Part shown: positions 29,777 to 44,625 of the stretch, in pieces | Layout of the letters: every line of letters begins with the position of its first letter | Numbering within the stretch: the stretch's first letter is position 1 | Assembly: GCA_026003175.1 (NCBI GenBank) | Contig: BPGT01000002.1 | Coordinates: 496,001-560,000, forward strand | DNA from: Armatimonadota bacterium | GTDB lineage: Bacteria > Armatimonadota > HRBIN16 | DNA length: 64,000 nt | Direction of reading: 5' to 3' | The notes under the pieces: model-generated | Databases searched by the model: none | The model's input: only the letters and a program-made list of their open reading frames with translations | What the model was told of the DNA's origin: nothing | Made by a program: the position numbers and the translations under genes

Positions 29777-30564
29777 GGCAGTGATTCCCCTTGCTGTTGC
29801 CAGATACGCTGGCACAACGGCAGGAAATCACACTGCTGACAGTAGGGGATGCGTTTCGGCTGCAGGTACTCGAAGTCGCGGGCGATTATCTCTTCACCAA
29901 GTTGACGGATATCCTCACGAAACTCTGCCAGCTCGGCGTCGGTAAGGCTCGCGCTGGCGAACGCGCCCGTCTGCAGAGCGACGATGGTGGCGATGATATG
30001 ACGGTCGGGGTAAAGGTGCTTCAGCAGCAGCTGGTAACAACACATCGCCAGGTCATCGTGCACCTCTTCGGGGGTCACGTCGGCACGCCAGCTCTTGTAG
30101 TCGATAATCTCCAGCGTGCCGTCGGGATGCTCATCCACCCGGTCCACGCGCCCTACCAGCGTGAACATGCCCATGTCCATGCGCAACATGCGTTCCTGCA
30201 TCAGGATGCGCGGTCGTTGCTCCGGCGCGATCTGCTGCATCATCTCCTGCACCCGCGCGTGGTACTGCTCTAGCAACACCGCTGCCATGTGCTGGAACTG
30301 CTGCTCCTCGTGGGGCGACTCATAGCCCGCCGCTACCCATTGCTGCTGCATCACCTGCTGTAGCTGTTCTACCGAAACCTCCTCGGCGCCGCCAGATGCG
30401 TGCAGGTGCTGTAACACCGCGTGCATCGTGGTGCCAAACGCGTACTCGCGCTTTGCCCGCATGTAGAACTTCCCACGCGGGTTGAGGTAGGTATGGTAAT
30501 ACTTCACCTCGCACAGCAGGTAGGTTCGGATACGACTGGGACTGAGCACGGGCTTGCGTGGCAT
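29773..30564 (-). CDS. PD-(D/E)XK nuclease family protein (RecB/Cas4-like) with Fe-S cysteines
   Basis: Single-domain exonuclease-type protein of 263 residues. The core has GRVDRVDEHPDG and LEIIDYKSW, giving the Asp ... Asp-Tyr-Lys active site. An N-terminal Cys (YLLCEVKYYHTY) and the C-terminal CQQCDFLPLC cluster match the four-cysteine Fe-S arrangement of AddB/Cas4-type nucleases. No CRISPR array or cas gene is near, so a housekeeping DNA-repair role is more likely than CRISPR adaptation. It lies two bases after the ACT-domain gene. Confidence 0.87.
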   Translation of the reverse strand: MPRKPVLSPSRIRTYLLCEVKYYHTYLNPRGKFYMRAKREYAFGTTMHAVLQHLHASGGAEEVSVEQLQQVMQQQWVAAGYESPHEEQQFQHMAAVLLEQYHARVQEMMQQIAPEQRPRILMQERMLRMDMGMFTLVGRVDRVDEHPDGTLEIIDYKSWRADVTPEEVHDDLAMCCYQLLLKHLYPDRHIIATIVALQTGAFASASLTDAELAEFREDIRQLGEEIIARDFEYLQPKRIPYCQQCDFLPLCQRIWQQQGESLP

Positions 30565-30566
30565 CG

Positions 30567-31034
30567 TTATACCGCCATCACGGTGGTTACTGTGTCCAGC
30601 AGTGTACCGCGTTCGCGTAGCATCTCCACTGCCTTATCTACCGCCTGCGTGCTGCCGGTGATGAGCAGCGTTTTGCTGTCGCCGCGCTCGGAGATAATCT
30701 CCGTTTGTAGCCCCTTTGTCGGGAGGTCCATCTTTTCGTCGGGGGCGACACGCACGATGGCGATGCTGCGCAGTTCACGTGAACCGTATGGATACGCCTG
30801 CACCTGCAGCACCTGCTGCAGGCGGGATAGGGTGCGCCAGAGCGTTTCCTTCTTGCGTTCGGTAGCGTGGAAGCTGAGCACGATGGTGCTGGGTGCGCCC
30901 AGCATACTGGCTGCACTACTGCCAAGTGTAGTTTCCAGCGACACTCCGCGACTAGAGAACGCCGAAGCGATGGCGGTCAGTGCACCCGGCTTATCCTGTA
31001 CCTTTATCACAAACACCCAGTGTTCATTCCCCAT
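30567..31034 (-). CDS. ACT-domain protein resembling the acetolactate synthase small subunit
   Basis: A 155-residue protein. Residues 5-75 form an ACT domain (VFVIKVQDKPGALTAIASAF), a regulatory amino-acid-binding fold. The second half (ELRSIAIVRVAPDEKMDLPT and SKTLLITGSTQAVDKAVEML) resembles the C-terminal half of IlvN/IlvH. No large subunit (IlvB) is adjacent, so it may be a divergent paralogue and not the true regulatory subunit. Its ATG overlaps the end of the dehydrogenase gene by 11 bases, so the two are coupled. Confidence 0.75.
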   Translation of the reverse strand: MGNEHWVFVIKVQDKPGALTAIASAFSSRGVSLETTLGSSAASMLGAPSTIVLSFHATERKKETLWRTLSRLQQVLQVQAYPYGSRELRSIAIVRVAPDEKMDLPTKGLQTEIISERGDSKTLLITGSTQAVDKAVEMLRERGTLLDTVTTVMAV

Positions 31035-32091
31035 ATTTGGTCCACTCTCGTAGCTTGCGTTGAATCTGGCTGGCGGATTGCATCAGCAACCGTGCTTCGT
31101 CCTCCCAGAGCTGTACTGTCACCACCTGCGACCATCCATTATTGCCCACCACAATCGGCGCGCCGATGGCGGTGTGGATGCCGTAAAACTCTCCGTCCAG
31201 CCGAACCTGTCCTGCCACCACAATCTCGCGCCCATCCATCAGCGTGCGCACGAGGTCTACGGTCACGTTGGCGGTTGCCACCGCCGTTTTCGCGCCCGAA
31301 AGGTGTGTGAGGTATGGCTTTAATACCACGCGCAGGTCAGGCGGGAGGCGGTCTACGTGCTCGAACGCCTCGCGGATCAACCCCTGCTGCAGATATGCGA
31401 CCACGCTCAGCTTCTCGCGTTGCACCTCCTGCGGAAAGTCCAGCACACTGCGGTTTCCGCGCAGCCGCCCGCTAATTGTCAGCATCTCTTCCATGTCCAT
31501 CCCGTAGATACGCACACTGCTCCAGAGGGGAACCATCTGCTCGCCGTGCTCGCCCACCACGAAGGCGTGTACCATCTGACGGCGCACACCTACGTCGGCG
31601 GCGATTTCGCGGCGGAAACGCAGTGAATCCGAGTACGCGCCGATACCGATAACCCGGTGCCTGCCCAGATAGCGGCTAAAAATCTCCACGCCCAGTTCCA
31701 CCGGATTGGTAACGATAATGACCACCTCGTTGCCGTGGCCGTACTTCTCGATGGCACGGGCGTAGGCATGGAACACCGGCAGGTTAGTATGCGCCAGTGT
31801 ATCGCGGGAAGGCGCGCTGGTAGCATCGGTAGGTACAGCTTGTCCCGCCGCCATCACAATAATATCGCCCACCACCTCTTCGGGATGCAGCGCCACATCC
31901 AGCTCCGGGGCGATTTCAGCGTAGGCGTCGGAGAGGTCGCTGCGCAAGCCGAAGAGCACGCGCTCGCTCCTGCCGCCTCGCCTGCCCACCAGCTGCAGGC
32001 GTTCGGTGGGGGAGAGTACTCGCTCTGCTACCAGTTGTATCGCGATTTCGCGCCCGCAGTCGCCGCTGGCGCCGATAACTGATACATCCAT
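31024..32091 (-). CDS. Malate/lactate dehydrogenase family protein with atypical substrate loop
   Basis: NAD-dependent 2-hydroxyacid dehydrogenase fold, 355 residues. The Rossmann motif is GASGDCGREIA. VTNPVELGVEIFSR and FVVGEHGEQMVPLWSSV correspond to the conserved NPVD and catalytic GEHGDS regions. The specificity loop normally reading RKPGMSR in malate dehydrogenase is replaced by QAVPTDATSAPSRDTL, so the first substrate-binding Arg is missing while the later one is kept. Substrate therefore cannot be assumed to be malate. It is followed by the overlapping ACT gene. Confidence 0.83.
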   Translation of the reverse strand: MDVSVIGASGDCGREIAIQLVAERVLSPTERLQLVGRRGGRSERVLFGLRSDLSDAYAEIAPELDVALHPEEVVGDIIVMAAGQAVPTDATSAPSRDTLAHTNLPVFHAYARAIEKYGHGNEVVIIVTNPVELGVEIFSRYLGRHRVIGIGAYSDSLRFRREIAADVGVRRQMVHAFVVGEHGEQMVPLWSSVRIYGMDMEEMLTISGRLRGNRSVLDFPQEVQREKLSVVAYLQQGLIREAFEHVDRLPPDLRVVLKPYLTHLSGAKTAVATANVTVDLVRTLMDGREIVVAGQVRLDGEFYGIHTAIGAPIVVGNNGWSQVVTVQLWEDEARLLMQSASQIQRKLREWTKYGE

Positions 32092-32095
32092 CGCT

Positions 32096-32638
32096 TCAAC
32101 CGTCCCAGATAACGTCTTGCACGCCTTCCGCTGCGTTGACCACCCTTGCCATCACAAACAGCAGGTCGCCCAGACGGTTGAGATAGGTGATGAGGTGCAG
32201 GTTGCCGGGCTCAACATGGTAAAGCGACACCACACGCCGTTCCGCCCGACGGCATACTGTGCGCGCGACATGCAGTGTTGCCGCGCCTGCGGTTCCGCCC
32301 GGCAGGATGAAATGCCGCAGGGCTGGCAGGTTTTGCTCTAGCTCATCGATCCAGTTCTCCAGCCTCTGTACATGCGCCTCACCAATCGGCTCTACCGGCA
32401 CCTTGTGACCGGCGGGCGTTGCCAGCTCCGCACCGGCGACAAACAGTTCGTTCTGTATCTGCTGTAACATTTCACAAAGACGCGGATGTGGACGCACATG
32501 TGCCATCGCCAATCCCAGGTACGCATTGAGCTCGTCGACGCTTCCGTACGCCTCCACGCGAGGGCAATCCTTGCTTACCCGTTGTCCACCCAGTAAGCCT
32601 GTTGTGCCGTTGTCGCCCGTTCTGGTATAGATGCGCAT
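32096..32638 (-). CDS. Cob(I)alamin adenosyltransferase, PduO type
   Basis: Transfers the adenosyl group of ATP to cob(I)alamin to make coenzyme B12. The 180 residues show the N-terminal ATP motif YTRTGDNGTTGLLGG, VEAYGSVDELNAYLG and the C-terminal ILPGGTAGAATLHVARTVCRRAERRV helix motif, all signatures of the trimeric PduO/MMAB family. It lies four bases upstream of the dehydrogenase gene on the same strand. Confidence 0.95.
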   Translation of the reverse strand: MRIYTRTGDNGTTGLLGGQRVSKDCPRVEAYGSVDELNAYLGLAMAHVRPHPRLCEMLQQIQNELFVAGAELATPAGHKVPVEPIGEAHVQRLENWIDELEQNLPALRHFILPGGTAGAATLHVARTVCRRAERRVVSLYHVEPGNLHLITYLNRLGDLLFVMARVVNAAEGVQDVIWDG

Positions 32639-32869
32639 GACAAACCTCGTTCGCGAAGTACGCTCTCATTTTGGCGCATTCGGCGAGCGATGTCAAGGCG
32701 TTTAATACGAAGAGGAACTGGTGCGCTGTGTTCTGCCTCACGTCAGCGGCTGTGATGGACTTCAATCACGGTAGATCGCCTTCCTGAAGAGGCGGACCGA
32801 TGATATTGTCTGCTCTGCGCGGACGGCTCCAGCCGAAACAGGTTGATATGCTATCAATATGGTGCCGAC

Positions 32870-32896
32870 GGCTTGGCGGGAGCCTTGCCCTCCACG
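32870..32896. repeat. Copy of dispersed element family B
   Basis: GGCTTGGCGGGAGCCTTGCC followed by CTCCACG, the most complete match to the copy at 15115. It ends 18 bases before the tandem 11-base repeats. Confidence 0.6.
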
Positions 32897-32913
32897 TACT
32901 CGTGAGAAAAATA

Positions 32914-32937
32914 TCGAGAATTTTTCGAGAATTTTTT
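32914..32937. promoter_or_regulatory. Tandem 11-bp direct repeat upstream of the nar-like promoter
   Basis: TCGAGAATTTT is repeated head to tail (32914-32924 and 32925-32937 with extra T). The unit length is about one helical turn, so two proteins could bind the same face of the DNA. It ends 21 bases before the -35 box, a usual position for an activator site or an UP element. Confidence 0.5.
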
Positions 32938-32958
32938 CCCCCAATACCTAGAAAGACC

Positions 32959-32987
32959 TTGACACCCACAAGGATTGTGCATATAAT
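32959..32987 (+). promoter_or_regulatory. Near-consensus promoter of the NarK/nar-like operon
   Basis: TTGACA (32959-32964), 17 bases, TATAAT (32982-32987): both hexamers are perfect. Transcription would start near 32994, about 64 bases before the transporter ATG. A short inverted repeat (32994-33005) lies at the start site. Confidence 0.8.
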
Positions 32988-33057
32988 ATCAAATAGATAT
33001 TCATATCCGATTATTTAGTTTTGCTGAATCCATCTAACAACTAGCTGGGGGTGCTTT

Positions 33058-34254
33058 ATGGACAATCGTGAGCCTGTCAAGGCACTAACTCTTTCCACGC
33101 TGGCTTTTGCCATCGCCTTTGCGGTGTGGGGCGTGATTGCCCCGATGGCGAAGACCTTCCAGACGAACCTGAACCTGACCGAAAAGCAGGCGTGGCTCCT
33201 TATCGCTGTGCCGGTGTTGCTGGGTTCTGTTGGGCGCATCCCGATGGGCATGTTAGCCGACCGGTTTGGGGGCAGGATAGTGTTCAGCGCGCTGTTGATT
33301 TTCGTCGCCATTCCTGCCTTCATGCTCAGCTTTGCCAGAAGCTACACCGACTTTCTGGTGTGGGCGTTGTTGCTGGGCACTGCTGGCACGTCGTTTTCCA
33401 TCGGTATCGCCTTCACTTCGAAGTGGTTTCCACCGCAGAAGCAGGGGCTCGCGCTGGGAATCTACGGGGCGGGCAACATCGGGCAGAGTTTTGCCCTGTT
33501 TGGCGTGCCTCTACTGGCAGGGCTATGGGGCTGGCAAACCACCTACCGCTTTTTTGGAGCGGTCGCGCTGCTATGGGGGTTGGTTTTCTTGCTCTTTGCC
33601 CGCAACGCGCCGGTTAAAGTGCAGCCCAAGTCCTTTGGCGCGATGGTGAAAGTGCTGACAAGCGAGCCGTTGTCGTGGTTGTTATCGTTGTTCTACTTCG
33701 TGACCTTTGGCGGATTTGTCGCACTCAGCATCGGCTTGCCCAAATTGCTCCAGGAGATTTTCCACCTGACGAAAGAGGACGCGGGCTTGCGCACCGCAGG
33801 TTTTGTGGTGCTTGCCACCGCTATGCGTCCGATAGGGGGATGGCTCAGCGATCGTTTTGGTGGAGCTCAGGTGCTGGTAGCGGTGTTCGCGGCAGCTGCA
33901 GCGTTCGCTTGGGGATTAACCTTCGAGCACATCGTGCCCTTCACCATCGGTGCGCTGGGTATCGCTGCCGCCATCGGCACGGGCAACGGCGCAGTGTTCA
34001 AACTGGTGCCCCAGTACTTCCCCAAAGATGTGGGCACGGTAACCGGTCTGGTGGGCGCAATGGGTGGATTAGGGGGCTTTTTCCCACCGATTGTACTGGG
34101 CTACATCAAGACCTACACGGGCGTCTACGATTTGGGGTTCGCGTTGTTATCGGCGTTCTGCGTTGCTTGCCTGCTGTTGAACTACCGGGTGTTCCTGCTG
34201 CCCGTGCGCAGAGCGCAGGCTGAGCAAGTGACCGCAGTGGCTTCTGGTGGGTAA
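33058..34254 (+). CDS. MFS transporter, nitrate/nitrite (NarK/NasA) type
   Basis: Twelve-helix major facilitator of 398 residues. GRIPMGMLADRFGGR is the MFS loop motif. GAGNIGQSFALFGVPLLAG and GAMGGLGGFFPPIVLG match the two nitrate-signature regions of the NarK/NRT2 family. It starts after GGGGGTGCTTT. As the first gene of the cluster it points to nitrate (or nitrite) as the substrate or product of the downstream reductase, though related oxyanions are not excluded. Confidence 0.88.
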   Translation: MDNREPVKALTLSTLAFAIAFAVWGVIAPMAKTFQTNLNLTEKQAWLLIAVPVLLGSVGRIPMGMLADRFGGRIVFSALLIFVAIPAFMLSFARSYTDFLVWALLLGTAGTSFSIGIAFTSKWFPPQKQGLALGIYGAGNIGQSFALFGVPLLAGLWGWQTTYRFFGAVALLWGLVFLLFARNAPVKVQPKSFGAMVKVLTSEPLSWLLSLFYFVTFGGFVALSIGLPKLLQEIFHLTKEDAGLRTAGFVVLATAMRPIGGWLSDRFGGAQVLVAVFAAAAAFAWGLTFEHIVPFTIGALGIAAAIGTGNGAVFKLVPQYFPKDVGTVTGLVGAMGGLGGFFPPIVLGYIKTYTGVYDLGFALLSAFCVACLLLNYRVFLLPVRRAQAEQVTAVASGG

Positions 34255-34270
34255 AAGGAGGTATCTGTGT

Positions 34271-36736
34271 ATGGCGACACGACACGCAGTTCCGGGGCGC
34301 ATCCCCAAGCCGGCTCCGCAGGAAGCAGTGCGTGTGGTGCGTACCACTGATAGTCCGAACTGTACAGGGGCGTGTGGCTGGCTGGCGACAGTAGTCAACG
34401 ATGTTATCGTGGACCTGAAGCCCGCTGCCGATTACCCCTGCGAGGAGTACAACCCGCGCGGATGCCTGCGCGGGATGTCCATGACACATATCATTTACGG
34501 TCCCGACCGCATCAGGACACCGCTCATCCGCACCGGAGAGCGCGGCGAAGGCAAATGGAAGGAAGCCTCCTGGGATGAAGCGCTGGACTACATCGCCCAG
34601 AAGATGAAACACATCATCGAAAACTACGGCGCGGACAGCATGTTGCTGTTCAATCAGGTGGTGGGAACCAGCTACGTGCAGAAAGGTGCGCAAATCCGCA
34701 TGGCGGCACTGCTGGGCATGTCCTTTGCCACCGCGTACGACTACAACGGCGACATCTCCATGGGCTTCACGCAAACACTGGGTATCGACAGCGTGGAGTG
34801 CGAGAGCAAGAGCTGGGGCTATGCTAAGTACGCTATCTTGTGGTCCTCCAACGTGTTGCAAACACGCATTCCCGACGCGCAGTTCCTGACGAGGTTTGCC
34901 AAGCAGCGTAACAACTGCAAAATCGTGGCGATAGACCCTCGCTGCAACCAGACCGTTAAGGCAGCAGACCTCTGGCTGCCCATTAACCCGGGCACTGATG
35001 GTGCGCTTGCGCTGGCGATGTGTCGGGTGCTGATAGAGGAAGGTCTGGTGGACTGGCAGTTCTTACGCACCTACACCGACTGCGCCACGCTGATTCGGCA
35101 AGACAACGGGATGCGCCTGCGTGCCAGCGACCTGGGAATAGGCAGCGAAAACGAGTTTCTGGTGTGGGACCAGACCCGACAGGACTTCTACAAGCTGCCT
35201 GCAGACACGTTGGAGCTGCCGGAGGATGTGACCCCCGCTTTCAAAGGCGAGTGGACGGTGCAAATCGAGGGCGAAGCAGTAAAGGTAGTACCCGTCTATC
35301 AACTGCTGGAGACGATGGTGATGCAGGACGAATATCGCCCCGAGCGCGTGGCGGAAATCACCGACATCCCGGCAGAGACCATTCGCCAGGTAGCGCGAGA
35401 ATACGCTACCACGAAGCCAGCGATTATCATTATCGGCATGGGCATTAACCACCGCTATCACGGCGACCTGACCATCCGCGCCATTCTGCTGTTGAGCGCG
35501 CTGGCGGGTAACTACGGTACGCCTGGCTCCGGCGTATCCATCTATTCGGGGCAGCATCACTTCCGCATCGACATCAGCGGATTCTGGTTCCCGGAAGGCA
35601 AACGCCCCAACGTGGTGCCGATGCATTACTTCGTGCTGGGCAAACCTACCGAGACCATCAACCCGAAGATTAAATACCCGAAGCACGGCTTCAAGGCGTT
35701 GTTCGTGTCGCATGGTAACCCGCTGGTGACCGAGTTCTCCAGCCTGATGAAGAAGGCGATAGACGACCTCGAGCTGTTCGTGGTGATAGACTTCTCCATG
35801 ACGCCTACCTGCGAGTACGCCGATGTGGTGTTGCCTGCGCCCACGTTCTGGGAAAAATATGACCTGGTAGCGACGGGCTGTCATCCCTATCTACAGATAC
35901 AACAACCGGTCATCCCCCCTCAATATGAGAGCAGGACAGAGCTGTGGATGGTGCAGCAACTTATCAAGCGCGTGGCTCCAGAGTTATATCCCTACTTCGA
36001 CCTCACCGAATTGGACGCCATCCGCATCCTGCTGGAAACGGCGGGCAAAGAGACTGAGGGCATCACCGTAGAGCAGCTTTTGCAGGGTCCCGTACGCCTC
36101 AACGTGCCAGACCCCGAAATCGGGTTGGACGAGCAGCTACTGCACAAGAAGCCCTTCCCTCCTCGTGCCTATCCGTTCAGGCTGGAGCAGCAGAAGGAGT
36201 ACCACAAGACGGGGCGCATGGAGTTCTACAAGGAGGAACCGATTTACCAGCGAATGGGCGAGGCGCTACCCGTTTTCAAGCCCGCGTTCAGTCATCTGCC
36301 CGAGGAGGACCAGAGGTTGCCCCTGTGCATCGTCACGCCGCACTCCAAGTGGCGGGTGCACTCTACCCACAGCAACAACCCGCTGTTGCTTAACGTGAAT
36401 CGCAAGCCGGTGGTGGAGATAAACCCGCTGGATGCCGCCGCGCGCGGTATCCAGGACGGCGACCTCGTGGAGGTTTTCAGCAACTACGGCTCTTATCGCC
36501 TATGGGCGCTGGTGACCGAAACCATCAAGCCCGGTGTGGTATGTGTGGACCACGGATGGTGGGACCGCTATCTCGCCGGAGGCAAATACCACAGCGTGCA
36601 TACACACCAGAAGATTAAGCCCACGCATGAGGCGTACTTCCTTCCGGCGGTGTACGCGCCCGGACAACACTGGAAGGACACCCGCGTGGACGTGAGAAAG
36701 GTGGGGAACAATGGCGCGACTGGCAATGTTGATTGA
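34271..36736 (+). CDS. NarG-like molybdopterin oxidoreductase, catalytic subunit (short form)
   Basis: Mo-bisPGD enzyme of the DMSO reductase superfamily, type II branch. ATG 34271 follows AAAGGAGG at eight bases. In the 821-residue protein the FS0 region reads Asp27-x3-Cys31-x3-Cys35-x29-Cys65 (PNCTGACGW ... NPRGCLRG), closely like NarG except that the first ligand, His in NarG, is Asp. AYDYNGD gives Asp161 at the position of the NarG molybdenum ligand, and WSSNVLQTRIPDAQF is also NarG-like. NarG has about 1,240 residues, so this is much shorter. I see no Tat signal, so the site is probably cytoplasmic. It overlaps the next gene by 26 bases. Nitrate is the likely substrate, from context. Confidence 0.86.
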   Translation: MATRHAVPGRIPKPAPQEAVRVVRTTDSPNCTGACGWLATVVNDVIVDLKPAADYPCEEYNPRGCLRGMSMTHIIYGPDRIRTPLIRTGERGEGKWKEASWDEALDYIAQKMKHIIENYGADSMLLFNQVVGTSYVQKGAQIRMAALLGMSFATAYDYNGDISMGFTQTLGIDSVECESKSWGYAKYAILWSSNVLQTRIPDAQFLTRFAKQRNNCKIVAIDPRCNQTVKAADLWLPINPGTDGALALAMCRVLIEEGLVDWQFLRTYTDCATLIRQDNGMRLRASDLGIGSENEFLVWDQTRQDFYKLPADTLELPEDVTPAFKGEWTVQIEGEAVKVVPVYQLLETMVMQDEYRPERVAEITDIPAETIRQVAREYATTKPAIIIIGMGINHRYHGDLTIRAILLLSALAGNYGTPGSGVSIYSGQHHFRIDISGFWFPEGKRPNVVPMHYFVLGKPTETINPKIKYPKHGFKALFVSHGNPLVTEFSSLMKKAIDDLELFVVIDFSMTPTCEYADVVLPAPTFWEKYDLVATGCHPYLQIQQPVIPPQYESRTELWMVQQLIKRVAPELYPYFDLTELDAIRILLETAGKETEGITVEQLLQGPVRLNVPDPEIGLDEQLLHKKPFPPRAYPFRLEQQKEYHKTGRMEFYKEEPIYQRMGEALPVFKPAFSHLPEEDQRLPLCIVTPHSKWRVHSTHSNNPLLLNVNRKPVVEINPLDAAARGIQDGDLVEVFSNYGSYRLWALVTETIKPGVVCVDHGWWDRYLAGGKYHSVHTHQKIKPTHEAYFLPAVYAPGQHWKDTRVDVRKVGNNGATGNVD

Positions 36737-38597
36737 CCTCACGCGGTGCATCGGTTGCGATTCCTGCACCCTTGCCTGCAAACAGGAGAACGGCACGCCG
36801 ATGGATGTGTTCTTCGCGCGTGTACTGAACGTGGAGGCGGGGACCTATCCCCTCGTGAAGCGCATTTACATTCCGGTTCTATGTAACCATTGTGAAAACC
36901 CGGCGTGCCTCAAAGCCTGTCCCAACAAGGCGATTTTCCGCCGCGAGGACGGCATTGTGCTGATAGACCAGGACAGATGTCGTGGTGCGGGAGCCTGCGT
37001 GTCCGCATGCCCCTACGGCAACATCATTTTGACTGACCGCGACCGCTGGTACCTGCCCGATGACCGGGCATACGAGCGCGATTACGTCCGACCGCGCCTG
37101 AAGGAGCAGGTTGCTCGTAAATGCACTTTTTGCGCGCACCGCGTAGACGAGGGACTGGAACCCGCGTGTGTGGTGGCGTGCCCGACTACTGCCCGCATCT
37201 TCGGCGATGTGGAAGACCCGAACAGTAGGATTTCGCAGTACATCGCTGAGCAACGACAGACAACGGGACGTGAGCCGTTCAAGCTGCTTCCCGAAGCGCA
37301 AACGCAGCCCGCCAACATGTATCTGGGCACGATGGCAAAGCAGGAGGTGAGCACGCTGAGCGCGCCTTCCGCGCCTTCGGAGCATCGGGTGGAGATGGGA
37401 CAACAGCGCGAACCGGAACGTGCAGGTGTAATGGCGGGCGCAGCGCGGCTGTTCGCCAAACTTACCGCCCTGTGGCTGTTTATCATGGTGCTCCTGTTCG
37501 TCTTGCAGGTAGTTGCTCAGCAAAACGACTCGGCTCCCACCCCGGCAGAACTATACTCCGATTCTTCCTGCGCGGGTTGCCACGGACCGACTGCGATGGG
37601 TGGCCTGGGACCGCCTCTGGCGGAGACGAAGCGTTCACTGGAGGAGTTTAAAAAGATAGTGCGAGAAGGGCGAGGCATGATGCCCGCCACACCACCTTCG
37701 GAGATGCCCGACGAGGAGATAGCGGTCATCCACGATTTTGTGCAGAAGACAAAGCTTGACCCTTCGCAAGTTCCAGTCTCCTACAAAATCGGGCAGTGGC
37801 TGAGCACTACCCACGTCACAGTGATATTTGCCGTCATCAGCCTTGTGTGGCTGGTGCTGACCCTGCGTGTGCTGTGGTACTGGGTGGACTGCGCGGGCTG
37901 GAAGAACCTGAAGCCCTATCTGCGCAAATTCGGCTACGGCAGGGCGCTGGGGGTGTTCCTGCGATCCCTTATCGTGGACGGATTGCTCGTCGCGCACCTG
38001 TGGCGCAGGGACAGATTCCGCTGGATGATGCACGCGTTCATGCTTTACGGTTTCCTTGCGCTGGGATTGTCGGATATCCTGATGAGCATCTTCAATCCCA
38101 CGCGCGGAACCCTGCCCATCACGCATCCGCTAAAGCTGCTGCCCAATCTGGCGGGGTTGGCGATACTGGCAGGTATTGTATATGTGCGCTATCGCTACAG
38201 CGAGGACCCCTATATCGATAACGGACTCACCCTGAGCAGAGACTACACCTTCCTGAGCCTGCTCACGTGGACGATACTGACGGGCTTTCTGGTGGAGGGG
38301 CTGGGCTATGCGGGAGCGTATGTGTTCATCCAGCCCGCCTATATCCTGCATCTGTCTCTGGTAGCGGCGTTGTTCCTGACCGCGCCCTTCACGCGCTTCC
38401 AGCACGCCTTTCTCGTGCCCGTGCTAATGGCGCTCACGAAGGTCACCTCGCAGGTAGCGTACAGCGGTGTGGAACTGGGCTTTCTGAGCGAGCCTTCGCC
38501 GGGGCGACATCACAAGTCGGAGCGAATAGCGCAGGATGTCCTGCAGCATGTCGCACCGGATCTCGCCGGCAAATTCCGATTGCGATACTATCCGTAG
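36711..38597 (+). CDS. Fusion of NarH-like Fe-S subunit, cytochrome c domain and NarI-like membrane anchor
   Basis: One 628-residue chain that seems to join three electron carriers. Residues 1-210: four-cluster ferredoxin domain (CIGCDSCTLAC, CNHCENPACLKACP, CTFCAHRVDEG). The third motif reads Cys90-Arg-Gly-Ala-Gly-Ala-Cys96, lacking one Cys exactly where NarH has Trp, so one cluster is probably [3Fe-4S]. About 243-264: a membrane helix. About 275-355: a c-type cytochrome with Cys287-Ala-Gly-Cys290-His291 and likely Met ligands (GRGMMPA). 365-600: several membrane helices with paired His (MMHAFMLYG, LHLSLVAALFL, RFQHAFL) like NarI/HdrE. This topology puts the clusters inside and the heme c outside. 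Ribosome-binding site GGTGGGG, overlapping the Mo subunit. Confidence 0.85.
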   Translation: MARLAMLIDLTRCIGCDSCTLACKQENGTPMDVFFARVLNVEAGTYPLVKRIYIPVLCNHCENPACLKACPNKAIFRREDGIVLIDQDRCRGAGACVSACPYGNIILTDRDRWYLPDDRAYERDYVRPRLKEQVARKCTFCAHRVDEGLEPACVVACPTTARIFGDVEDPNSRISQYIAEQRQTTGREPFKLLPEAQTQPANMYLGTMAKQEVSTLSAPSAPSEHRVEMGQQREPERAGVMAGAARLFAKLTALWLFIMVLLFVLQVVAQQNDSAPTPAELYSDSSCAGCHGPTAMGGLGPPLAETKRSLEEFKKIVREGRGMMPATPPSEMPDEEIAVIHDFVQKTKLDPSQVPVSYKIGQWLSTTHVTVIFAVISLVWLVLTLRVLWYWVDCAGWKNLKPYLRKFGYGRALGVFLRSLIVDGLLVAHLWRRDRFRWMMHAFMLYGFLALGLSDILMSIFNPTRGTLPITHPLKLLPNLAGLAILAGIVYVRYRYSEDPYIDNGLTLSRDYTFLSLLTWTILTGFLVEGLGYAGAYVFIQPAYILHLSLVAALFLTAPFTRFQHAFLVPVLMALTKVTSQVAYSGVELGFLSEPSPGRHHKSERIAQDVLQHVAPDLAGKFRLRYYP

Positions 38598-38608
38598 GAG
38601 GCAAGCCG

Positions 38609-39115
38609 ATGAGAAGTAATGGTCTGGAATATCAGGAACAGCAACCGGATTCCCCCATCCGGCGCAGGGTACTGAGCTGGCTGGTGGGGTTGATCAATCT
38701 AGGGGTAATAGCGGGCTTTATTGCGCCGGTGCTGGGGTTCATCAGCTCGCCTACCCGCCGACGACGAGAGCAGGGAGAGTGGGTGCCGGTACTGAACGCC
38801 CATGAACTGAAGCCCGGCGAAACCAGAGCGGTGACGTACTCGTTGATGGTGAAAGACGGCTACATGACCGCCGAGCACCGCTACAGTGTTTACCTGTACC
38901 ACCGAAGCGACGGCACTATCCTAGCGTTTGACCCTTCCTGCCCGCATCTAGGTTGCCGGGTGGAGTTCAAAGAGCGCAAGCAGCGCTATGTGTGTCCTTG
39001 TCACGGTGGAGTATTTGACACCGAAGGCAATCTGGTCTCCGGTCCGCCTCCAACCGGATTAACGAAGTTGCCTGCGCGTGTGGATGGAGGCAAAATCTGG
39101 ATACAGAGGGTGTAG
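38609..39115 (+). CDS. Rieske [2Fe-2S] protein
   Basis: Quinol-oxidising iron-sulfur protein of a bc-type complex, 168 residues. The start is set by TAGGAGG nine bases before ATG; a longer in-frame stretch upstream lies inside the previous gene. A membrane anchor at about 22-45 (WLVGLINLGVIAGFIAPVLGF) precedes the Rieske fold with Cys111-Pro-His113-Leu-Gly-Cys116 and Cys129-Pro-Cys131-His132-Gly-Gly, so both cluster His and the disulfide pair are present. It lies 11 bases after the fusion gene. Confidence 0.95.
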   Translation: MRSNGLEYQEQQPDSPIRRRVLSWLVGLINLGVIAGFIAPVLGFISSPTRRRREQGEWVPVLNAHELKPGETRAVTYSLMVKDGYMTAEHRYSVYLYHRSDGTILAFDPSCPHLGCRVEFKERKQRYVCPCHGGVFDTEGNLVSGPPPTGLTKLPARVDGGKIWIQRV

Positions 39116-39119
39116 GACA

Positions 39120-40307
39120 ATGGCGCACCTGATAGAGAAAACTACCGAGAAACCGACGCCTCGCTCGGATGGCAAGCCTGAGACAGGCGTGGAACTGTCC
39201 CGCCAGACGGGGTGGGTTGGTGCAGTGCGCGACTGGATAGAAGAGCGCACCGGATTGTTCGGCTTTATCAAACACCATCTGGACGAGCCGATGCCTCCAG
39301 GCGTGGGGTGGTGGCAAACGCTGGGCAATCTACTGCTCACGCTACTCATTTTCCAGTTCATTACCGGTTTCGCGCTGGCGATGTTCTACGCGCCCACACC
39401 CGACCACGCGCACGAGAGCGTGAAGCACATCACCGAGAACGTGCCACTGGGAGCGTTCATTCGCGGATTGCACCACTGGGGATCTTCGTTCATTATGCTG
39501 GTAGTGGTGCTGCACATCCTGCGCGTGTTCTTCTGGGGGGCTTATAAGAAGCCGCGCGAACTCACGTGGCTGGTCGGCGTTGCCATCTTTCAGGTGATAC
39601 TGGCGTTCGCCTTCACCGGCTACCTGCTGATTTGGGACCAGAAGGCGTACTGGGCGACGGTAGTAGGCACGCGATTCGCCAGCACCGTGCCCATTATCGG
39701 CGAGTGGCTAATGCGATTCCTGCGTGGCGGTAAAGAGGTAGGAGCGCTGACGCTCACCCGTTTCTACGCCATCCACATCATGCTATTACCGGTGGCGCTG
39801 GTGCTGCTGACCGCGGCGCATCTGTATCTGGTTCGGCGGTTGCACATCTCCGGTCCGGTGATTCCTCAGAAGGGTACCCCGCAGCCGTTCTATCCATACC
39901 AGCTGTTCCGTGACGCGGTGGTGGTGCTGGTGGGCATGGGGTTGTTGATGACCTGTGCTCTGCTGTTCAAGCCGCCACTGTACCCTGTCGCCGACCCATC
40001 GGGCACGGCGTTCACCCCACGTCCAGAATGGTACTTTCTGGGCTTGTATGAACTGTTGAAGCTAATGCCGCCCAAACTCGAAGTTCTTGGCACGGTGGTA
40101 ATACCCGGTCTGGTGGCAATCGGCATGATATTGCTGCCGTGGCTGGACCGCTCGCCGTCGCGTCACCCTGCGTATCGTAAGTGGGTGATTGACGTAGGGC
40201 TGATTATTATCTTCCTGATAGGCACGCTCACGTTGAAGGGCATCCTGTCCGAGCCGCCAACGCCGCCGCCTGCGCAGGTTTCTTCCACGACATCGGGTTC
40301 GCGATAG
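39120..40307 (+). CDS. Cytochrome b of a bc-type quinol-oxidising complex
   Basis: Membrane diheme subunit, 395 residues. ATG 39120 comes four bases after the Rieske stop. The two heme-b ligand pairs are visible as HHWGSSFIMLVVVLHILR and AIHIMLLPVALVLLTAAHLY. TPRPEWYFLGLYELLK contains the PEWY motif of the Qo site. N-terminal (b6-like) and C-terminal (subunit IV-like) parts are in one chain. No separate cytochrome c1 gene follows; the heme c domain of the fusion two genes upstream could accept the Rieske electron. Pro-rich C-terminal tail. Confidence 0.95.
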   Translation: MAHLIEKTTEKPTPRSDGKPETGVELSRQTGWVGAVRDWIEERTGLFGFIKHHLDEPMPPGVGWWQTLGNLLLTLLIFQFITGFALAMFYAPTPDHAHESVKHITENVPLGAFIRGLHHWGSSFIMLVVVLHILRVFFWGAYKKPRELTWLVGVAIFQVILAFAFTGYLLIWDQKAYWATVVGTRFASTVPIIGEWLMRFLRGGKEVGALTLTRFYAIHIMLLPVALVLLTAAHLYLVRRLHISGPVIPQKGTPQPFYPYQLFRDAVVVLVGMGLLMTCALLFKPPLYPVADPSGTAFTPRPEWYFLGLYELLKLMPPKLEVLGTVVIPGLVAIGMILLPWLDRSPSRHPAYRKWVIDVGLIIIFLIGTLTLKGILSEPPTPPPAQVSSTTSGSR

Positions 40308-40317
40308 TCGGTTCCTT

Positions 40318-40336
40318 CGTGGAGGGCACGGCTCCA
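40318..40336. repeat. Degenerate family B element
   Basis: CGTGGAGGGCACGGCTCC resembles the complement of the right half of family B (GGAGCCTCGCCCTCCACG). Weak but in the expected intergenic position between cytochrome b and the nuclease gene. Confidence 0.35.
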
Positions 40337-40430
40337 TTCGAGGATGAGAAGGAGGTACGGTCGCGGCGGAGTGCGTCCATCCGGTAGTCTTGCAGGATAC
40401 CGTTTCCCCAACCGCTAACTATCAACCACT

Positions 40431-40976
40431 ATGCGCAAAAGCCGAGCATTCCGAACAACCATTCCCCTCGCGGCGGTGGTGCTGGTGATCATCGCATCCG
40501 CGCTGTGGCAGCGGTGGATGCCCGCGCGTGGGGATTTCACTGGCAGGGTGGTGGGCGTCTCCGACGGCGACACGATAGAGGTGATGCGTGCGGGAAGGGC
40601 GGTACGCGTGCGCCTGCAAGGTATCGATTGCCCTGAAAGTCATCAGGCGTACGGTAGTCGGGCGAAACAGTTTACCGCTGAGCTGGCGTTTGGCAAGACG
40701 GTGGCGGTACAGGTTCATGGAACCGACCAGTACGGTCGCATCCTTGGCGAAGTCATCCTGCCCGATGGGCGCAGCCTGAATCGTGAGCTGGTGCGCAACG
40801 GTTATGCGTGGTGGTATCGGCGTTATTCCGATGACCCGGTGCTGCAGCAATTAGAGGAGGAAGCGCGCCGCGAACGGCGCGGCTTGTGGCGTGATAAGAA
40901 CCCTGTACCTCCTTGGGAGTTTCGGAGGGGGCGCAGGAGGGAGACGGAAAGTTATACCGCGTCACCGTTCCGCTGA
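40431..40976 (+). CDS. Membrane-anchored or secreted thermonuclease-family (SNc) nuclease
   Basis: Staphylococcal-nuclease-like protein of 181 residues. An N-terminal hydrophobic anchor (TIPLAAVVLVIIASALW) is followed by the SNc domain: VSDGDTIEV, RVRLQGIDCPE (catalytic Arg and Glu) and QYGRILGEV (second Arg). The C-terminus RRERRGLWRDKNPVPPWEFR is typical of the family. The start has only a weak ribosome-binding site. It probably degrades extracellular or periplasmic nucleic acid. Confidence 0.9.
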   Translation: MRKSRAFRTTIPLAAVVLVIIASALWQRWMPARGDFTGRVVGVSDGDTIEVMRAGRAVRVRLQGIDCPESHQAYGSRAKQFTAELAFGKTVAVQVHGTDQYGRILGEVILPDGRSLNRELVRNGYAWWYRRYSDDPVLQQLEEEARRERRGLWRDKNPVPPWEFRRGRRRETESYTASPFR

Positions 40977-41061
40977 AGTAGCCTGGCTTGCAGGAATCTC
41001 CCTGTTCGTCCCCGAAAGCGTACCCTGACACTGTCAGCACAGAGAAAGGAGCGTATAACGT

Positions 41062-41898
41062 ATGGAAATCGGCATATTGACCGCGCCGTTTGGTGGGGAA
41101 CCGCTGGAGGTAGTGGCAGCTTTCGCGGGCGAGCACGGCTTCGCCGCGCTAGAGGTTGCTTCGGGACCGGGTTCCAAGCATATCGACATCACGAACTTCA
41201 CGCAGGCGGACGCCGAGCGTATTTTAGAACTGATGGAGCGACGCGCCCTGCGCATCAGCAGTGTGGCGATGTACACCAATACCACCCCAGCTGACCCGCA
41301 GGAGCGCGCGAAGGTGGTTGATCTGCTGAAGAAGGCGGTAGACGCCGCACATCTGCTGGGTGTGGATGTGGTGTGTACTCTCGGTGGAATGCCTGTGCCC
41401 GGCAAGGATAAGTTCAAGACCATTCAGGAAGACTGCACGCAGGTTTTTCCACCGCTGCTGGATTACGCCGGCGAACGGGGCATCAAGATTGCTTTAGAGA
41501 ACTGGTACGCCACCAACATGCAGGGCTTGGAGCACTGGAAGTGCATGTTCGACGCCATTCCGCATGAGAACTTCGGCTTGAACTTCGACCCCTCGCACCT
41601 GATATGGCAGGGCATCGACTACATCGCAGCGGTGCATTATTTCGGCAAACGCATCTTCCACACGCACGCCAAAGACACCGAGATTCGCGAGGACAAGCTG
41701 CGCTGGCTGGGCAATCAGGTGCATGGCTGGTGGCGGTACGTGATACCCGGCTTCGGCGCGGTGCGTTGGGGCGAGTATATCGGTGCGTTGAGGGCTGTCG
41801 GCTACGACGGCGTGCTCTCCATCGAGCATGAAGATAGCGCGTTTGGGCGCGAAGAGGGCTTCCTCGCCGGTAAGCGATACCTGAGCCAGTTCGTATAG
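41062..41898 (+). CDS. Sugar phosphate isomerase/epimerase family protein (xylose-isomerase-like TIM barrel)
   Basis: A 278-residue protein beginning after AAAGGAG. MEIGILTAPFGGEPLEVVAAFAGE, then ALENW, NFGLNFDPSHLIWQG, HTHAKDTEI and VLSIEHEDSAFG carry the metal-binding Glu, Asp and His residues of the AP_endonuc_2 barrel. It is followed ten bases later by an FGGY kinase gene, so the pair may isomerise and then phosphorylate a pentose or polyol. Confidence 0.88.
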   Translation: MEIGILTAPFGGEPLEVVAAFAGEHGFAALEVASGPGSKHIDITNFTQADAERILELMERRALRISSVAMYTNTTPADPQERAKVVDLLKKAVDAAHLLGVDVVCTLGGMPVPGKDKFKTIQEDCTQVFPPLLDYAGERGIKIALENWYATNMQGLEHWKCMFDAIPHENFGLNFDPSHLIWQGIDYIAAVHYFGKRIFHTHAKDTEIREDKLRWLGNQVHGWWRYVIPGFGAVRWGEYIGALRAVGYDGVLSIEHEDSAFGREEGFLAGKRYLSQFV

Positions 41899-41908
41899 GA
41901 GGTGCGCA

Positions 41909-43439
41909 ATGGCATACCTGCTGGGCATCGACGTGGGTACCAGCGGCACCAAAGCGTTGCTCATCGACGAAAGCGGGAAGGTAGTCGCTCGTGCGGTGAG
42001 CGAATATCCGCTGTATACCCCGAAGCCCCTTTGGGCGGAACAGGACCCCGCCGACTGGTGGCGGGCGACCTGCGAAAGCATCCGCGAAGTGCTGCGCCAG
42101 GCGGGTATCACCGGCGAGCAGGTGCGGGGCGTGGGACTGTCCGGGCAGATGCACGGCTCGGTGTTCCTCGACGAAAACAATCAGGTCATTCGCCCAGCCA
42201 TTCTTTGGTGTGACCAGCGCACGGCGGCAGAGTGCGCATGGATTACTGAGACCGTCGGGCGCGAGCGCGTGGTGGAGCTGACCTCCAACCCGGTGCTCAC
42301 GGGCTTTCAGGCGGGTAAGATTATCTGGCTGCGTAACAACGAGCCGGAGGCGTACGCCCGCGTGCGCAGGGTGCTGCTGCCAAAGGACTATATCCGTTTT
42401 CTGCTCACTGGCGAGTACGCCACAGAGGTTTCGGACGCCTCTGGTACGTCGCTGTTCAACGTACGCAAGCGCGCTTGGGCGGATGAGGTACTGGACGCCA
42501 TCGGCATCCCCCGCGAATGGATGCCCAGAGTGTACGAGTCGCCGGAAGTCACTGGGCGTATCACTGCCGAAGCGGCGACGGCAACCGGGCTGAAAGAGGG
42601 TACGCCCGTTGTCGGTGGCGGCGGCGACCAGGCGGCAGGCGCGGTAGGCAACGGCATTGTGGAGACGGGCGTGGTGTCGGTGTCGGTGGGCACGTCGGGG
42701 GTGGTGTTTGCCTTCGCTGACGAGCCAGTGGTGGACCCCGGTTTGCGCACACATACCTTCTGCCACGCAGTGCCTGGCAAGTGGCACGTCATGGGCGTGA
42801 TGCTATCGGCAGGGGGTAGCCTGCGCTGGTGGCGTGATGCCTTTGCCACCGAGGAGAAAAGCGTCGCGACCGCAATGGGCGTGGACCCCTACGAGCTTAT
42901 CACCGCCGAGGCGGCGCAGGCTCCACTGGGCGCGGAGGGCTTGATTTTCCTGCCATACCTCACGGGCGAGCGTACCCCACACGCCGATCCCCATGCACGA
43001 GGTGTCTTCTTTGGTGTCACCCTGCGTTCCGACCGCTCGCATTTTGCCCGCGCGATACTGGAGGGGGGTGGCGTTCGGCTTGCGCGACTCCTTTGAAATC
43101 CTGCGCGAGATGGGCTTGCCGATTACGCAGGTGCGGGCGTCCGGCGGGGGGGCACGCAGTGCGGTGTGGCGACAGATTCTCGCTGACGTATCGGGCTACG
43201 ACCACGTGACCATCAACGTAGACGAGGGACCGGCGTTTGGTGTAGCATTACTGGCAGGTGTAGGCACAGGCGTATGGCAGAGCGTTGCTGAAGCCTGTCA
43301 TGCCACTATCCAGGTGGTGAGCAACACGCCTGCCGACCCAGGTGCCCACCATGCCTACAAACCGTACTACGTGCTTTATCGCAAGCTGTACCAGCACTTG
43401 AAGGCGGATTTCGCGGAGGTAGCAGGGTTGATGGAGTAG
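41909..43439 (+). CDS. FGGY-family carbohydrate kinase (xylulokinase-like), interrupted by a frameshift in a G run
   Basis: The first 385 residues read as a normal FGGY kinase: GIDVGTSGTKALLIDESG (ATP site), GLSGQMHGSVFLDE, LWCDQRTAAE, GGGGDQAAGAVGNG and TGERTPHADPHARG. At 43063-43068 a run of six G shifts the frame, so the first frame stops at 43096. Reading with five G would give RAILEGVAFGLRDSFEILRE and continue through VRASGGGARSAVWRQILADV to a stop at 43439, about 509 residues, the usual size. It is either a real inactivating mutation, a sequencing error or slippage. AGGAGGTGCGCA precedes the ATG. Confidence 0.88.
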
Positions 43440-43477
43440 CCTGCAGTCTGTTCATCCGGCTGGGGGAATAGCACCTC

Positions 43478-43507
43478 TTGCACTGTGGTTTCCCTTTTGT
43501 GTAACAT
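43478..43507 (+). promoter_or_regulatory. Candidate promoter of the DnaJ-domain gene
   Basis: TTGCAC (43478-43483), 18 bases, TAACAT (43502-43507), about 37 bases before the chosen ATG. Confidence 0.45.
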
Positions 43508-43544
43508 AGGGTGGTGCGCCCGGCAAGAGGTGGGGAAGGGTGAA

Positions 43545-43937
43545 ATGTGTCTGGTGGCATTGATTTCGTTCATTCTGGCGTGGAGGTTTCCGTTCTTCTG
43601 GCTGGTGTTTATCTGGTCACTGTGGGCAATGTCGCGACAGCCCAGGGCGACGTATCACTACCAGCACACGACCTATCAGCCTCCACGCACGGAGCCGCCT
43701 CGCCCGCGGAGCACGCTGTACGACCTGCTAGAAGTCAGTCCAAACGCCTCGCCGGAGGTGATTAAGGCCGCTTACCGCCAGCTTGCGCTCAAGTACCATC
43801 CTGACAAACAGCCGGATGTGCGGATGCGACGGCAGGCGGAAGAGCGTATGAAGCAAATCAACGCCGCCTACCACATCCTTTCCGACCCCGCGCGGCGGGC
43901 GGAGTACGACCGTCGGTTGCGCGAGGAGTTGATTTAA
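43545..43937 (+). CDS. Small membrane-anchored DnaJ-domain protein
   Basis: ATG 43545 follows GGGAAGGGTGAA; the frame is open further upstream but those starts overlap the promoter. The 130-residue protein has one or two N-terminal hydrophobic segments ([26 protein letters not shown]), a Tyr/Pro/Arg linker and a C-terminal J domain (about 60-125) with [20 protein letters not shown] and the HPD tripeptide in LKYHPDK. It lacks the Gly/Phe and zinc domains, so it would recruit DnaK to a membrane site instead of acting as a general DnaJ. Confidence 0.88.
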
Positions 43938-43958
43938 TCCACAAGGAGGGACATTGCC

Positions 43959-44606
43959 ATGAAGTGCCCAAAGTGCGGTGCGGAAGTCAAAGAGGGATTA
44001 GCCGCCTGCAGCGTGTGCTTTGCCCCCTTGACAGGTGAGGAGGCAGAGCGCGTAGCGAAGCTGGCGAAAGAGGCTCCTCAGCCAGCGCCTCAAGCGCGAT
44101 ATACGCCAGAAACCACGTTCCGCAGATCTGGCGGTAGAGGCGGAAAGGCGGCTGCGGTGATACTGGTTATCATCCTGCTGGCGGCGGTGGGCGTAGCGGG
44201 ATGGTATTACTTGATCTACCTGCGTTCGCCACAGTACGCCGCGCGCCAATTCCTGGACGGTATCAAAACCAAGAACTATCAGCAGGTGTACGACTACGGA
44301 CTCTGGACTGGCGTGCTGGGATATATTCAAAGCGCCGATGATGTTCGCAGAGCTTTTGAGATCGCTGCCCAGTTGGGTATGAACCAAACCTTCGATACTT
44401 ACACAATCAAGAAGGTCGCCGTCAATGGTGACAAAGCCACAGTCAGCGTCGAGATTAGTCGGGCGGGCAAGACAGGCGATAAGGACTTCGTTTTCGTGAG
44501 GACAAGCGATGGGAAGTGGAAGTGCGACCTGATGAACACTGTCAAGTCGGATCTCGAGAGGCTCATGCGCAACATGCGGATACCACAGTTCAACATGGGC
44601 AGATAA
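43959..44606 (+). CDS. Zinc-ribbon membrane protein with C-terminal DUF4878-like domain
   Basis: A 215-residue protein after AAGGAGGG. The N-terminus has a four-cysteine zinc ribbon (CPKCGAEVKEGLAACSVC). A Pro-rich linker, a membrane helix (AAAVILVIILLAAVGVAGWYYL) and an extracellular domain follow. The outer part (AARQFLDGIKTKNYQQVYDY, then VNGDKATVSVEISRAG and DGKWKCDL) resembles DUF4878/NTF2-like lipoprotein domains. The role is unknown. Confidence 0.72.
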   Translation: MKCPKCGAEVKEGLAACSVCFAPLTGEEAERVAKLAKEAPQPAPQARYTPETTFRRSGGRGGKAAAVILVIILLAAVGVAGWYYLIYLRSPQYAARQFLDGIKTKNYQQVYDYGLWTGVLGYIQSADDVRRAFEIAAQLGMNQTFDTYTIKKVAVNGDKATVSVEISRAGKTGDKDFVFVRTSDGKWKCDLMNTVKSDLERLMRNMRIPQFNMGR

Positions 44607-44625
44607 TGCTTCGCGGAGGACGACA

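What the first reader, a model, noticed from the sequence alone, without database searches (positions are those of the whole stretch)
36711..38597. One polypeptide joins four Fe-S clusters, a c-type heme and a NarI-like diheme-type anchor
Ferredoxin, single membrane helix, CAGCH heme domain and NarI-like helices are in one uninterrupted 628-residue frame. In known NarGHI these are separate subunits and heme c is usually a separate gene. The order alternates inside, membrane, outside, membrane, which fits the topology expected for each cofactor. I do not know a described enzyme with this fusion.
Basis: partly seen in the sequence, partly recalled or inferred. Interest (0 to 1): 0.75.

Follow-up and report, generated by a model that had tools for sequence, protein, structure and literature searches.

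The report
Fused nitrate-reductase electron-transfer subunit in Armatimonadota
In a little-studied bacterial phylum, the electron-wiring parts of a likely nitrate-respiring enzyme are joined in one gene next to its own Rieske/cytochrome b pair, which hints at a nitrate reductase wired differently from the textbook one.

Summary
The 628-residue frame at 36711-38597 is real and in the stated order: four-site ferredoxin, hydrophobic segment, c-heme domain (CAGCH), NarI-fold membrane domain. It is not a one-off: 37 of 291 Armatimonadota genomes carry the parts, always with the same molybdenum subunit. They share one frame in 13, form two genes in 23 and are cut by a contig end in 1. In 36 of 37 a Rieske protein and cytochrome b follow.

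Corrections: one Fe-S site has three cysteines (probably 3Fe-4S); the membrane domain keeps three, not four, conserved helix histidines, so "diheme" is unproven; the "single helix" matches a signal peptide in the two-gene relatives and keeps a signal-peptidase-like site, so the mature protein may be cut in two.

Best reading: a cytoplasm-facing type II DMSO-reductase-family enzyme, most likely a nitrate reductase (NarK neighbour), fed from quinol through Rieske/cytochrome b to heme c, then inward to Fe-S and Mo. The route is inferred, not shown. My paper searches found nitrate-reductase predictions for one relative, but not this architecture. A new variant of a known kind.

The parts
32959..32987 (+). 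perfect sigma-70-type promoter (TTGACA, 17 nt, TATAAT), 70 bases before narK
   Evidence: 12 of 12 matches; the only perfect match in the window on either strand; a perfect match lies at the same place in L044 and L045, and in none of the other 36 fetched stretches
33058..34254 (+). NarK-family nitrate/nitrite transporter-like protein
   Evidence: TIGR00886 is the best NCBIfam hit, E 2.8e-72, 243.9 bits, below the curated cut-off 311.7
34271..36736 (+). molybdenum catalytic subunit, type II DMSO reductase-like, no Tat signal; ATG at 34271 by conservation of MATRHxVPGR (the listed ORF starts at GTG 34247; residue numbers in this report count from that GTG)
   Evidence: TIGR03479 best, E 2.7e-151 but below its cut-off; best PDB match PcrA; Asp169 Mo-ligand column and Asp35 in 32 of 32
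36711..38597 (+). fusion protein: beta ferredoxin + signal-anchor + cytochrome c + NarI-fold membrane domain
36711..37325 (+). beta domain, residues 1-205, 15 invariant Cys: C13/16/19/23, C58/61/66/70, C90/96/100, C138/141/153/157
   Evidence: best PDB ArrB 6cz7_B, PsrB 2vpw_B, PcrB 4ydd_B
37446..37517 (+). hydrophobic segment, residues 246-269, ending in VVA|Q (VVA at 37509-37517), the place of the signal peptide and its cleavage site in two-gene relatives
37533..37760 (+). class I cytochrome c domain, residues 275-350; CAGCH at 37569-37583; Met323/Met324 candidate distal ligand
   Evidence: Pfam; C, CH and MM invariant in the 29 sequences of A3; fold
37776..38462 (+). NarI-fold membrane domain, residues 356-584; invariant His441, His547, His565
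38609..39115 (+). Rieske [2Fe-2S] protein
   Evidence: Pfam Rieske E 4.2e-14 (query began one codon later); ATG and Shine-Dalgarno-like AGGAGG read directly
39120..40307 (+). cytochrome b (b6 plus subunit IV-like), no CxxCH; start uncertain (GTG 39078 or ATG 39120)
   Evidence: Pfam Cytochrome_B E 3.7e-52, Cytochrom_B_C E 1.9e-12

Best explanation
A five-gene unit encodes a membrane respiratory complex and its transporter: NarK-like protein, cytoplasmic type II DMSO-reductase-family Mo subunit (most likely reducing nitrate), the fused beta/cytochrome c/b-type anchor, Rieske protein and cytochrome b. Quinol is oxidised at the cytochrome b/Rieske pair; the Rieske centre passes electrons to the periplasmic heme c, which takes the place of cytochrome c1; the NarI-fold b-cytochrome carries them inward to the beta Fe-S clusters and the Mo site. 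Shown by computation: the gene set, its conservation, domain identity and ligand conservation. Inferred: substrate, direction, partner contacts and heme c as the entry point. Whether the fused product stays in one piece is left open.
For: The same 37 of 291 phylum genomes hold the Mo subunit and the beta/cyt c/membrane parts (a search with the last two parts alone gives the same 37 plus the G184 remnant). Rieske and cytochrome b follow directly in 36 of 37. The cytochrome b here has no CxxCH, whereas the genome's other Rieske/cytochrome b pair carries its c hemes in the same chain. Heme c has an invariant CxxCH and MM (29 sequences). No Tat signal on the Mo subunit in 32 of 32, unlike two relatives with a Tat motif, so it should face the cytoplasm like NarG (motif read by eye). 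NarK-like genes lie in the window and in 19 of 38 fetched stretches; 10 of 10 scanned hit the NarK family best (all below cut-off). The genome also holds an NrfA-family match. [quoted passage not shown]
Against: No biochemistry was found for any member. The substrate is not fixed: the Mo subunit is nearer to PcrA than to NarG in the PDB and scores below every curated NCBIfam cut-off listed. Asp replaces the FS0 His of NarG. The distal heme site lacks a clear second ligand, so the b-heme path is uncertain. One genome (G057) has no Rieske/cytochrome b downstream, and one same-genus genome (G184) keeps Rieske and cytochrome b after losing the rest, so the two modules can part. No NarJ/TorD-type (PF02613) chaperone was found in the genome. 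No complex could be modelled.
Confidence: 0.5

Rival explanations
1. The NarI-fold domain itself oxidises quinol, as in NarGHI, and heme c is an outlet or branch that hands electrons to periplasmic acceptors such as a nitrite reductase, as proposed for NarC of Thermus.
For: Thermus NarC is a c-type fourth subunit that interacts with NarI and can feed nitrite or NO reduction (PMC7694296, passages); the genome holds an NrfA-family match; NarI fold.
Against: The membrane domain lacks one of the four NarI heme histidines in 37 of 37; a Rieske/cytochrome b pair lies next to it in 36 of 37.
Confidence: 0.25
2. The gene is a polyprotein (a question about the product, not exclusive of the other readings): signal peptidase I cuts after residue 269 (VVA|Q), giving a beta subunit with a membrane tail and a separate cytochrome c/b subunit, as in the two-gene relatives. 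The cytochrome bc1 polyprotein of Bradyrhizobium (FbcH) is a recalled precedent.
For: In 23 of 23 two-gene relatives the hydrophobic segment stands at the start of the second gene. A small-x-small/Q,N,D,E motif follows the hydrophobic peak in 11 of 11 representative fused proteins (expected 6.2 from shuffles; 18 of 111 control windows from other helices). In the by-eye register +1 is Gln in 9 of 11.
Against: The register was chosen by eye, so its low entropy is partly built in; strict AxA is in only 7 of 13 fused proteins; conservation may be inheritance; the motif test is only moderately above shuffles.
Confidence: 0.5
3. The complex runs in reverse as a nitrite oxidoreductase, sending electrons from cytoplasmic nitrite outward to heme c and a cytochrome oxidase.
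For: NarG-like NXR with a NarI homologue and a periplasmic NarC homologue is described for Nitrobacter (PMC7694296 passage).
Against: Relatives are predicted organic-carbon-using heterotrophs (PMC7509429 section 19; PMC9671151 passages); a Rieske/cytochrome b pair fits quinol donation better.
Confidence: 0.07
4. Another oxyanion, such as (per)chlorate, selenate or an arsenic oxyanion, is the substrate.
For: Best PDB match of the Mo subunit is PcrA; the closest plasmid match sits beside a chlorite dismutase (33% identity); best PDB match of beta is ArrB.
Against: NarK-family neighbours in the window and 19 of 38 stretches; no chlorite dismutase noted among the window ORFs (30000-46000; read by eye, not scanned).
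Confidence: 0.2

Closest known systems
NarGHI respiratory nitrate reductase (E. coli)
   Same: Mo subunit with Asp Mo-ligand column, four-site Fe-S beta, NarI-fold anchor, NarK neighbour, no Tat signal
   Different: Beta and anchor joined in one gene with a c heme between; Mo subunit about 820 not 1247 aa; FS0 His replaced by Asp; three not four anchor histidines; no PF02613 chaperone found; Rieske/cytochrome b follow
Haloarchaeal pNar with NarB (Rieske) and NarC (cytochrome b)
   Same: Type II Mo subunit and Fe-S subunit encoded next to Rieske and cytochrome b; Q-cycle coupling proposed (PMC7754194, PMC2483277 passages; L085)
   Different: Those enzymes have a Tat motif and face outward; no NarI-like anchor, no fused c heme
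Thermus NarCGHI
   Same: A c-type cytochrome works with a NarI-type anchor (PMC7694296 passages)
   Different: NarC, NarH and NarI are separate proteins; the paper describes work without complex III
EtfD / QmoC / TcuB / TmcC membrane cytochromes
   Same: Membrane domain: QmoC model hits 32 of 32, TcuB 27 of 32, TmcC 20 of 32 members; EtfD is the best fold match
   Different: Hits of the window's domain are far below curated cut-offs; partners are different
PcrAB and PsrAB/ArrAB molybdoenzymes
   Same: Beta is nearest ArrB, PsrB and PcrB; PcrB shares the CxGAxxC three-cysteine site
   Different: No fused c heme or NarI-fold anchor (recalled)

Membership tests
Type II DMSO reductase family | Asp ligand to Mo at the NarG Asp222 column (number recalled) | tested here: met
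   Asp169 in 32 of 32 sequences with the column, aligned with NarG, PcrA-like and haloarchaeal NarG
Type II DMSO reductase family | HxxxCxxxC...C FS0 motif (stated for the family in PMC8301774, passage) | tested here: not met
   Asp35 in place of His in 32 of 32; cysteines kept (NarG alignment)
Type II DMSO reductase family | curated score cut-off of TIGR03479 | tested here: not met
   505.6 bits against 984.75, though it is the best model
NarGHI nitrate reductase | NarG, NarH, NarI as separate subunits above equivalog cut-offs | tested here: not met
   narG 265.8 of 1084.15, narH 80.6 of 524.05 bits; beta and anchor joined
NarGHI nitrate reductase | nitrate reduction by quinol | not testable with these tools
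   needs expression and assay
NarI diheme anchor | NarI fold | tested here: inconclusive
   Z about 10, rmsd about 5 A over about 180 residues, within the range that helical bundles can reach by chance; supported by the aligned His187/His205 pair and weak PF02665 hits in 28 of 32
NarI diheme anchor | four histidines (56, 66, 187, 205 in E. coli numbering; roles recalled) | tested here: not met
   three invariant in 37 of 37: H547 and H565 match H187 and H205; H441 falls between H56 and H66 in alignment
bc-type quinol:cytochrome c reductase | cytochrome b plus Rieske | tested here: met
   Pfam hits; 36 of 37 loci
bc-type quinol:cytochrome c reductase | own c-type heme (c1 or fused c) | tested here: not met
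   no CxxCH in the window's Rieske or cytochrome b translations (read by eye); the only c heme of the unit is in the fusion
signal-peptidase-processed polyprotein | cleavage in vivo | not testable with these tools
   site present; cleavage needs protein work

The most novel reading that the evidence does not exclude
A nitrate reductase whose electrons come through a dedicated Q-cycle: Rieske/cytochrome b oxidise quinol, a fused heme c replaces cytochrome c1 and the NarI-fold domain, having lost its own quinol-oxidising heme, is only a wire across the membrane. Inward electron transfer on top of the Q-cycle would move about four charges per nitrate instead of two in NarGHI (inference from recalled bioenergetics). 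In 13 genomes the wire and the ferredoxin are one gene whose product may be cut by signal peptidase.
Probability: 0.33. Interest if true: 0.78.

Novelty: new variant of a known kind. Interest (0 to 1): 0.57.

Why it matters
If right, it is a bacterial, inward-facing nitrate reductase coupled to a Q-cycle, with up to double the charge movement of textbook NarGHI, and a bacterial counterpart to the unresolved haloarchaeal NarB/NarC question. It also offers a natural series of fused and split versions of the same complex, and a testable case of a respiratory polyprotein cut by signal peptidase. It warns that 'narG' calls in Armatimonadota genomes may point to a different machine.

Tried and rejected
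Missed stop codon or assembly error: rejected; one frame in 13 genomes, frame kept across the linker. Chance juxtaposition: rejected; the same 37 of 291 genomes hold the Mo subunit.

Fused state as a single clade or its direction: unresolved. The tree needs 3 changes; a single fused clade is not rejected (p-AU 0.208); G057 is a long branch and the root is midpoint only.

Spread outside the phylum: 0 of 30, 0 of 298 and 2 of 57 genomes of three other unnamed phyla matched the cytochrome c plus membrane query at E 1e-8, the 2 only over the cytochrome c domain. In a 397-genome set that reaches beyond the phylum every match (38) was from the own genus or phylum, G184 remnant included. The plasmid collection gave no match. 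These are small samples; other phyla are not excluded. The fold lists show no other multi-domain match; this is no evidence of absence.

Dropped rows: near-copies G136, G179, G115, G131, G141 were left out of the signal-site representatives (11 of 13 fused, 20 of 23 split used, some of the split ones too short at the front to count at every position); G125 was left out of fused/split counts (contig end) and of the site tests; the membrane alignment A2 used 32 and A3 29 of the 37 genomes (for A3: G125, one of each of two near-copy pairs and the five two-heme forms left out), A1 54 rows. G057, G130 and G141 were not in the Mo-subunit alignment and G104 gave none there; G104 has its Mo gene about 12 kb away on the same contig.

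The ferredoxin part of the AlphaFold model is poor (pLDDT mostly under 50), so no fold claim rests on it. Which NarI histidine H441 stands for is unresolved by sequence; its place near the inner end of its helix suggests the proximal heme (inference). Paper searches for this architecture; on the membrane-domain family gave nothing useful; for the FbcH precedent, no paper with that gene name surfaced among the 10 listed.

Full report
Observation. The frame 36711-38597 (+) encodes 628 residues without a stop. Residues 1-205 are a four-site ferredoxin closest to ArrB, PsrB and PcrB. Residues 246-269 are hydrophobic. Residues 275-350 are a class I cytochrome c with CAGCH. Residues 356-584 are a membrane domain whose model matches EtfD (Z 12.7, rmsd 4.0, 240 aligned) and NarI (Z about 10); a separate model of the cytochrome c plus membrane part, with mean pLDDT 85.6, gives the same result. 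The Z values are in the range where helical bundles can match by chance, so I lean on the aligned histidine pair and the weak Pfam NarI hit in 28 of 32 members.

Neighbourhood. Upstream: a perfect sigma-70-type promoter at 32959-32987, also perfect at the same place in two same-genus relatives; a NarK-family protein; a Mo subunit whose last bases overlap the fusion's start. Downstream: a Rieske protein 11 bases after the stop, then cytochrome b. All five lie on the + strand and are close or overlapping, as in an operon.

Conservation. A protein search of 291 phylum genomes, and one with the Mo subunit, picked the same 37 genomes (for this means the matches beyond 1e-90, as its 65 listed genomes include ordinary ferredoxin-type subunits and the G184 remnant). 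Beta and cytochrome c/membrane parts share one frame in 13 genomes (G000, G179, G180, G008, G066, G068, G102, G146, G137, G057, G124, G135, G136), are two overlapping or adjacent genes in 23, and are cut by a contig end in 1. In 21 of 23 split loci the second gene is in the same relative frame. Rieske and cytochrome b follow in 36 of 37.

Cofactor ligands. Beta: 15 cysteines invariant in 37 of 37; the second cysteine of the third site is Thr (33) or Ala (4), Ala also in PcrB, so three 4Fe-4S and one 3Fe-4S cluster are expected (expectation from known relatives, recalled). Heme c: CxGCH and GMMP invariant in 29 sequences, so His/Met ligation is likely. Membrane: three invariant helix histidines; H547 and H565 align with NarI H187 and H205. 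The fourth is missing. In NarI, mutation of His66 is known to remove the distal heme (recalled; entry 1y5l is titled as that mutant), so loss of that ligand would also disable the usual quinol site. H441 is near the inner end of its helix, which suggests that the proximal pair is the one kept; sequence alignment does not settle this.

Catalytic subunit. Type II DMSO reductase-like by best model and best structure match, 31-34% identical to NarG, a perchlorate-reductase-like and a haloarchaeal NarG protein. Mo-ligand Asp169 is kept. FS0 His is Asp in 32 of 32, against a motif that PMC8301774 (passage) says seems conserved in all type II enzymes. No Tat signal in 32 of 32, so a cytoplasmic active site is expected.

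The single helix. In 23 of 23 two-gene relatives the second gene begins with a hydrophobic segment like a Sec signal peptide, placed just before the heme site. The fusion's helix aligns with it and ends in VVA|Q. In 11 of 11 fused representatives a signal-peptidase-like motif follows the hydrophobic peak, against 6.2 expected from shuffles and 18 of 111 control windows from other helices. The register was picked by eye and is not independent. No signal-peptide predictor was on hand. I therefore hold cut and uncut as about equally likely.

Mechanism. The unit has one c-heme protein, a cytochrome b without c heme, and a NarI-fold domain that lacks a NarI heme ligand. The simplest wiring is quinol to cytochrome b/Rieske, to heme c, to heme b, to Fe-S, to Mo. 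The genome's other Rieske/cytochrome b pair carries its own c hemes. The NarK neighbours, an NrfA-family match and the published prediction for Ch118 (PMC7509429: passages, section 19 read whole) point to nitrate. Nothing here was measured.

Known or new. The haloarchaeal Nar operons also pair a type II Mo enzyme with Rieske and cytochrome b, with a Q-cycle proposed and the electron path unproven (PMC7754194, PMC2483277, PMC8301774 passages). Thermus has a c-type subunit on NarI (PMC7694296 passages). The Armatimonadota unit combines both ideas on an enzyme predicted to face inward and, in 13 genomes, fuses three electron-transfer modules in one gene. The searches named in Tried and rejected did not find it described. 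I rate it a new variant of a known kind.

Noticed in passing
L081 (G184), junction near 10752-10787; window 32697-38438: A same-genus genome lacks the promoter, narK, the Mo gene and the fusion up to about residue 576 but keeps Rieske and cytochrome b at 97-98% identity; the left flank is 81% and the right flank 94% identical to the window, an odd step.
   Followed up: partly
L052 5716-9866 (G057): The Mo subunit's end, beta, cytochrome c and membrane domain run on in one frame without a stop between Mo and beta, but the Mo part is interrupted upstream; a TehA/SLAC1-like membrane protein (my reading of the sequence), not Rieske/cytochrome b, follows.
   Followed up: partly
L053, L055, L056 (fused), L065, L066 (split): Five genomes (G124, G135, G136, G140, G141) carry two CxxCH cytochrome c domains in tandem before the membrane domain.
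   Followed up: no
window 34349-34351 (Mo subunit residue 35, counted from GTG 34247): Asp in place of the FS0 histidine in 32 of 32 Mo subunits, an unusual cluster ligand for the family.
   Followed up: partly
G000:C3:434499-435053 (L092): A second Rieske/cytochrome b pair whose cytochrome b runs on into a multi-CxxCH c-type domain.
   Followed up: no
G000 whole genome: No PF02613 (NarJ/TorD-type) chaperone match although a Mo enzyme of this family is present; maturation may use another factor.
   Followed up: no
L059 and G104:C30:20411-22843: In one genome the Mo gene lies about 12 kb from the rest of the unit on the same contig.
   Followed up: no
window 32959-32987: Perfect sigma-70 consensus promoter before the unit, conserved in two same-genus genomes.
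   Followed up: yes
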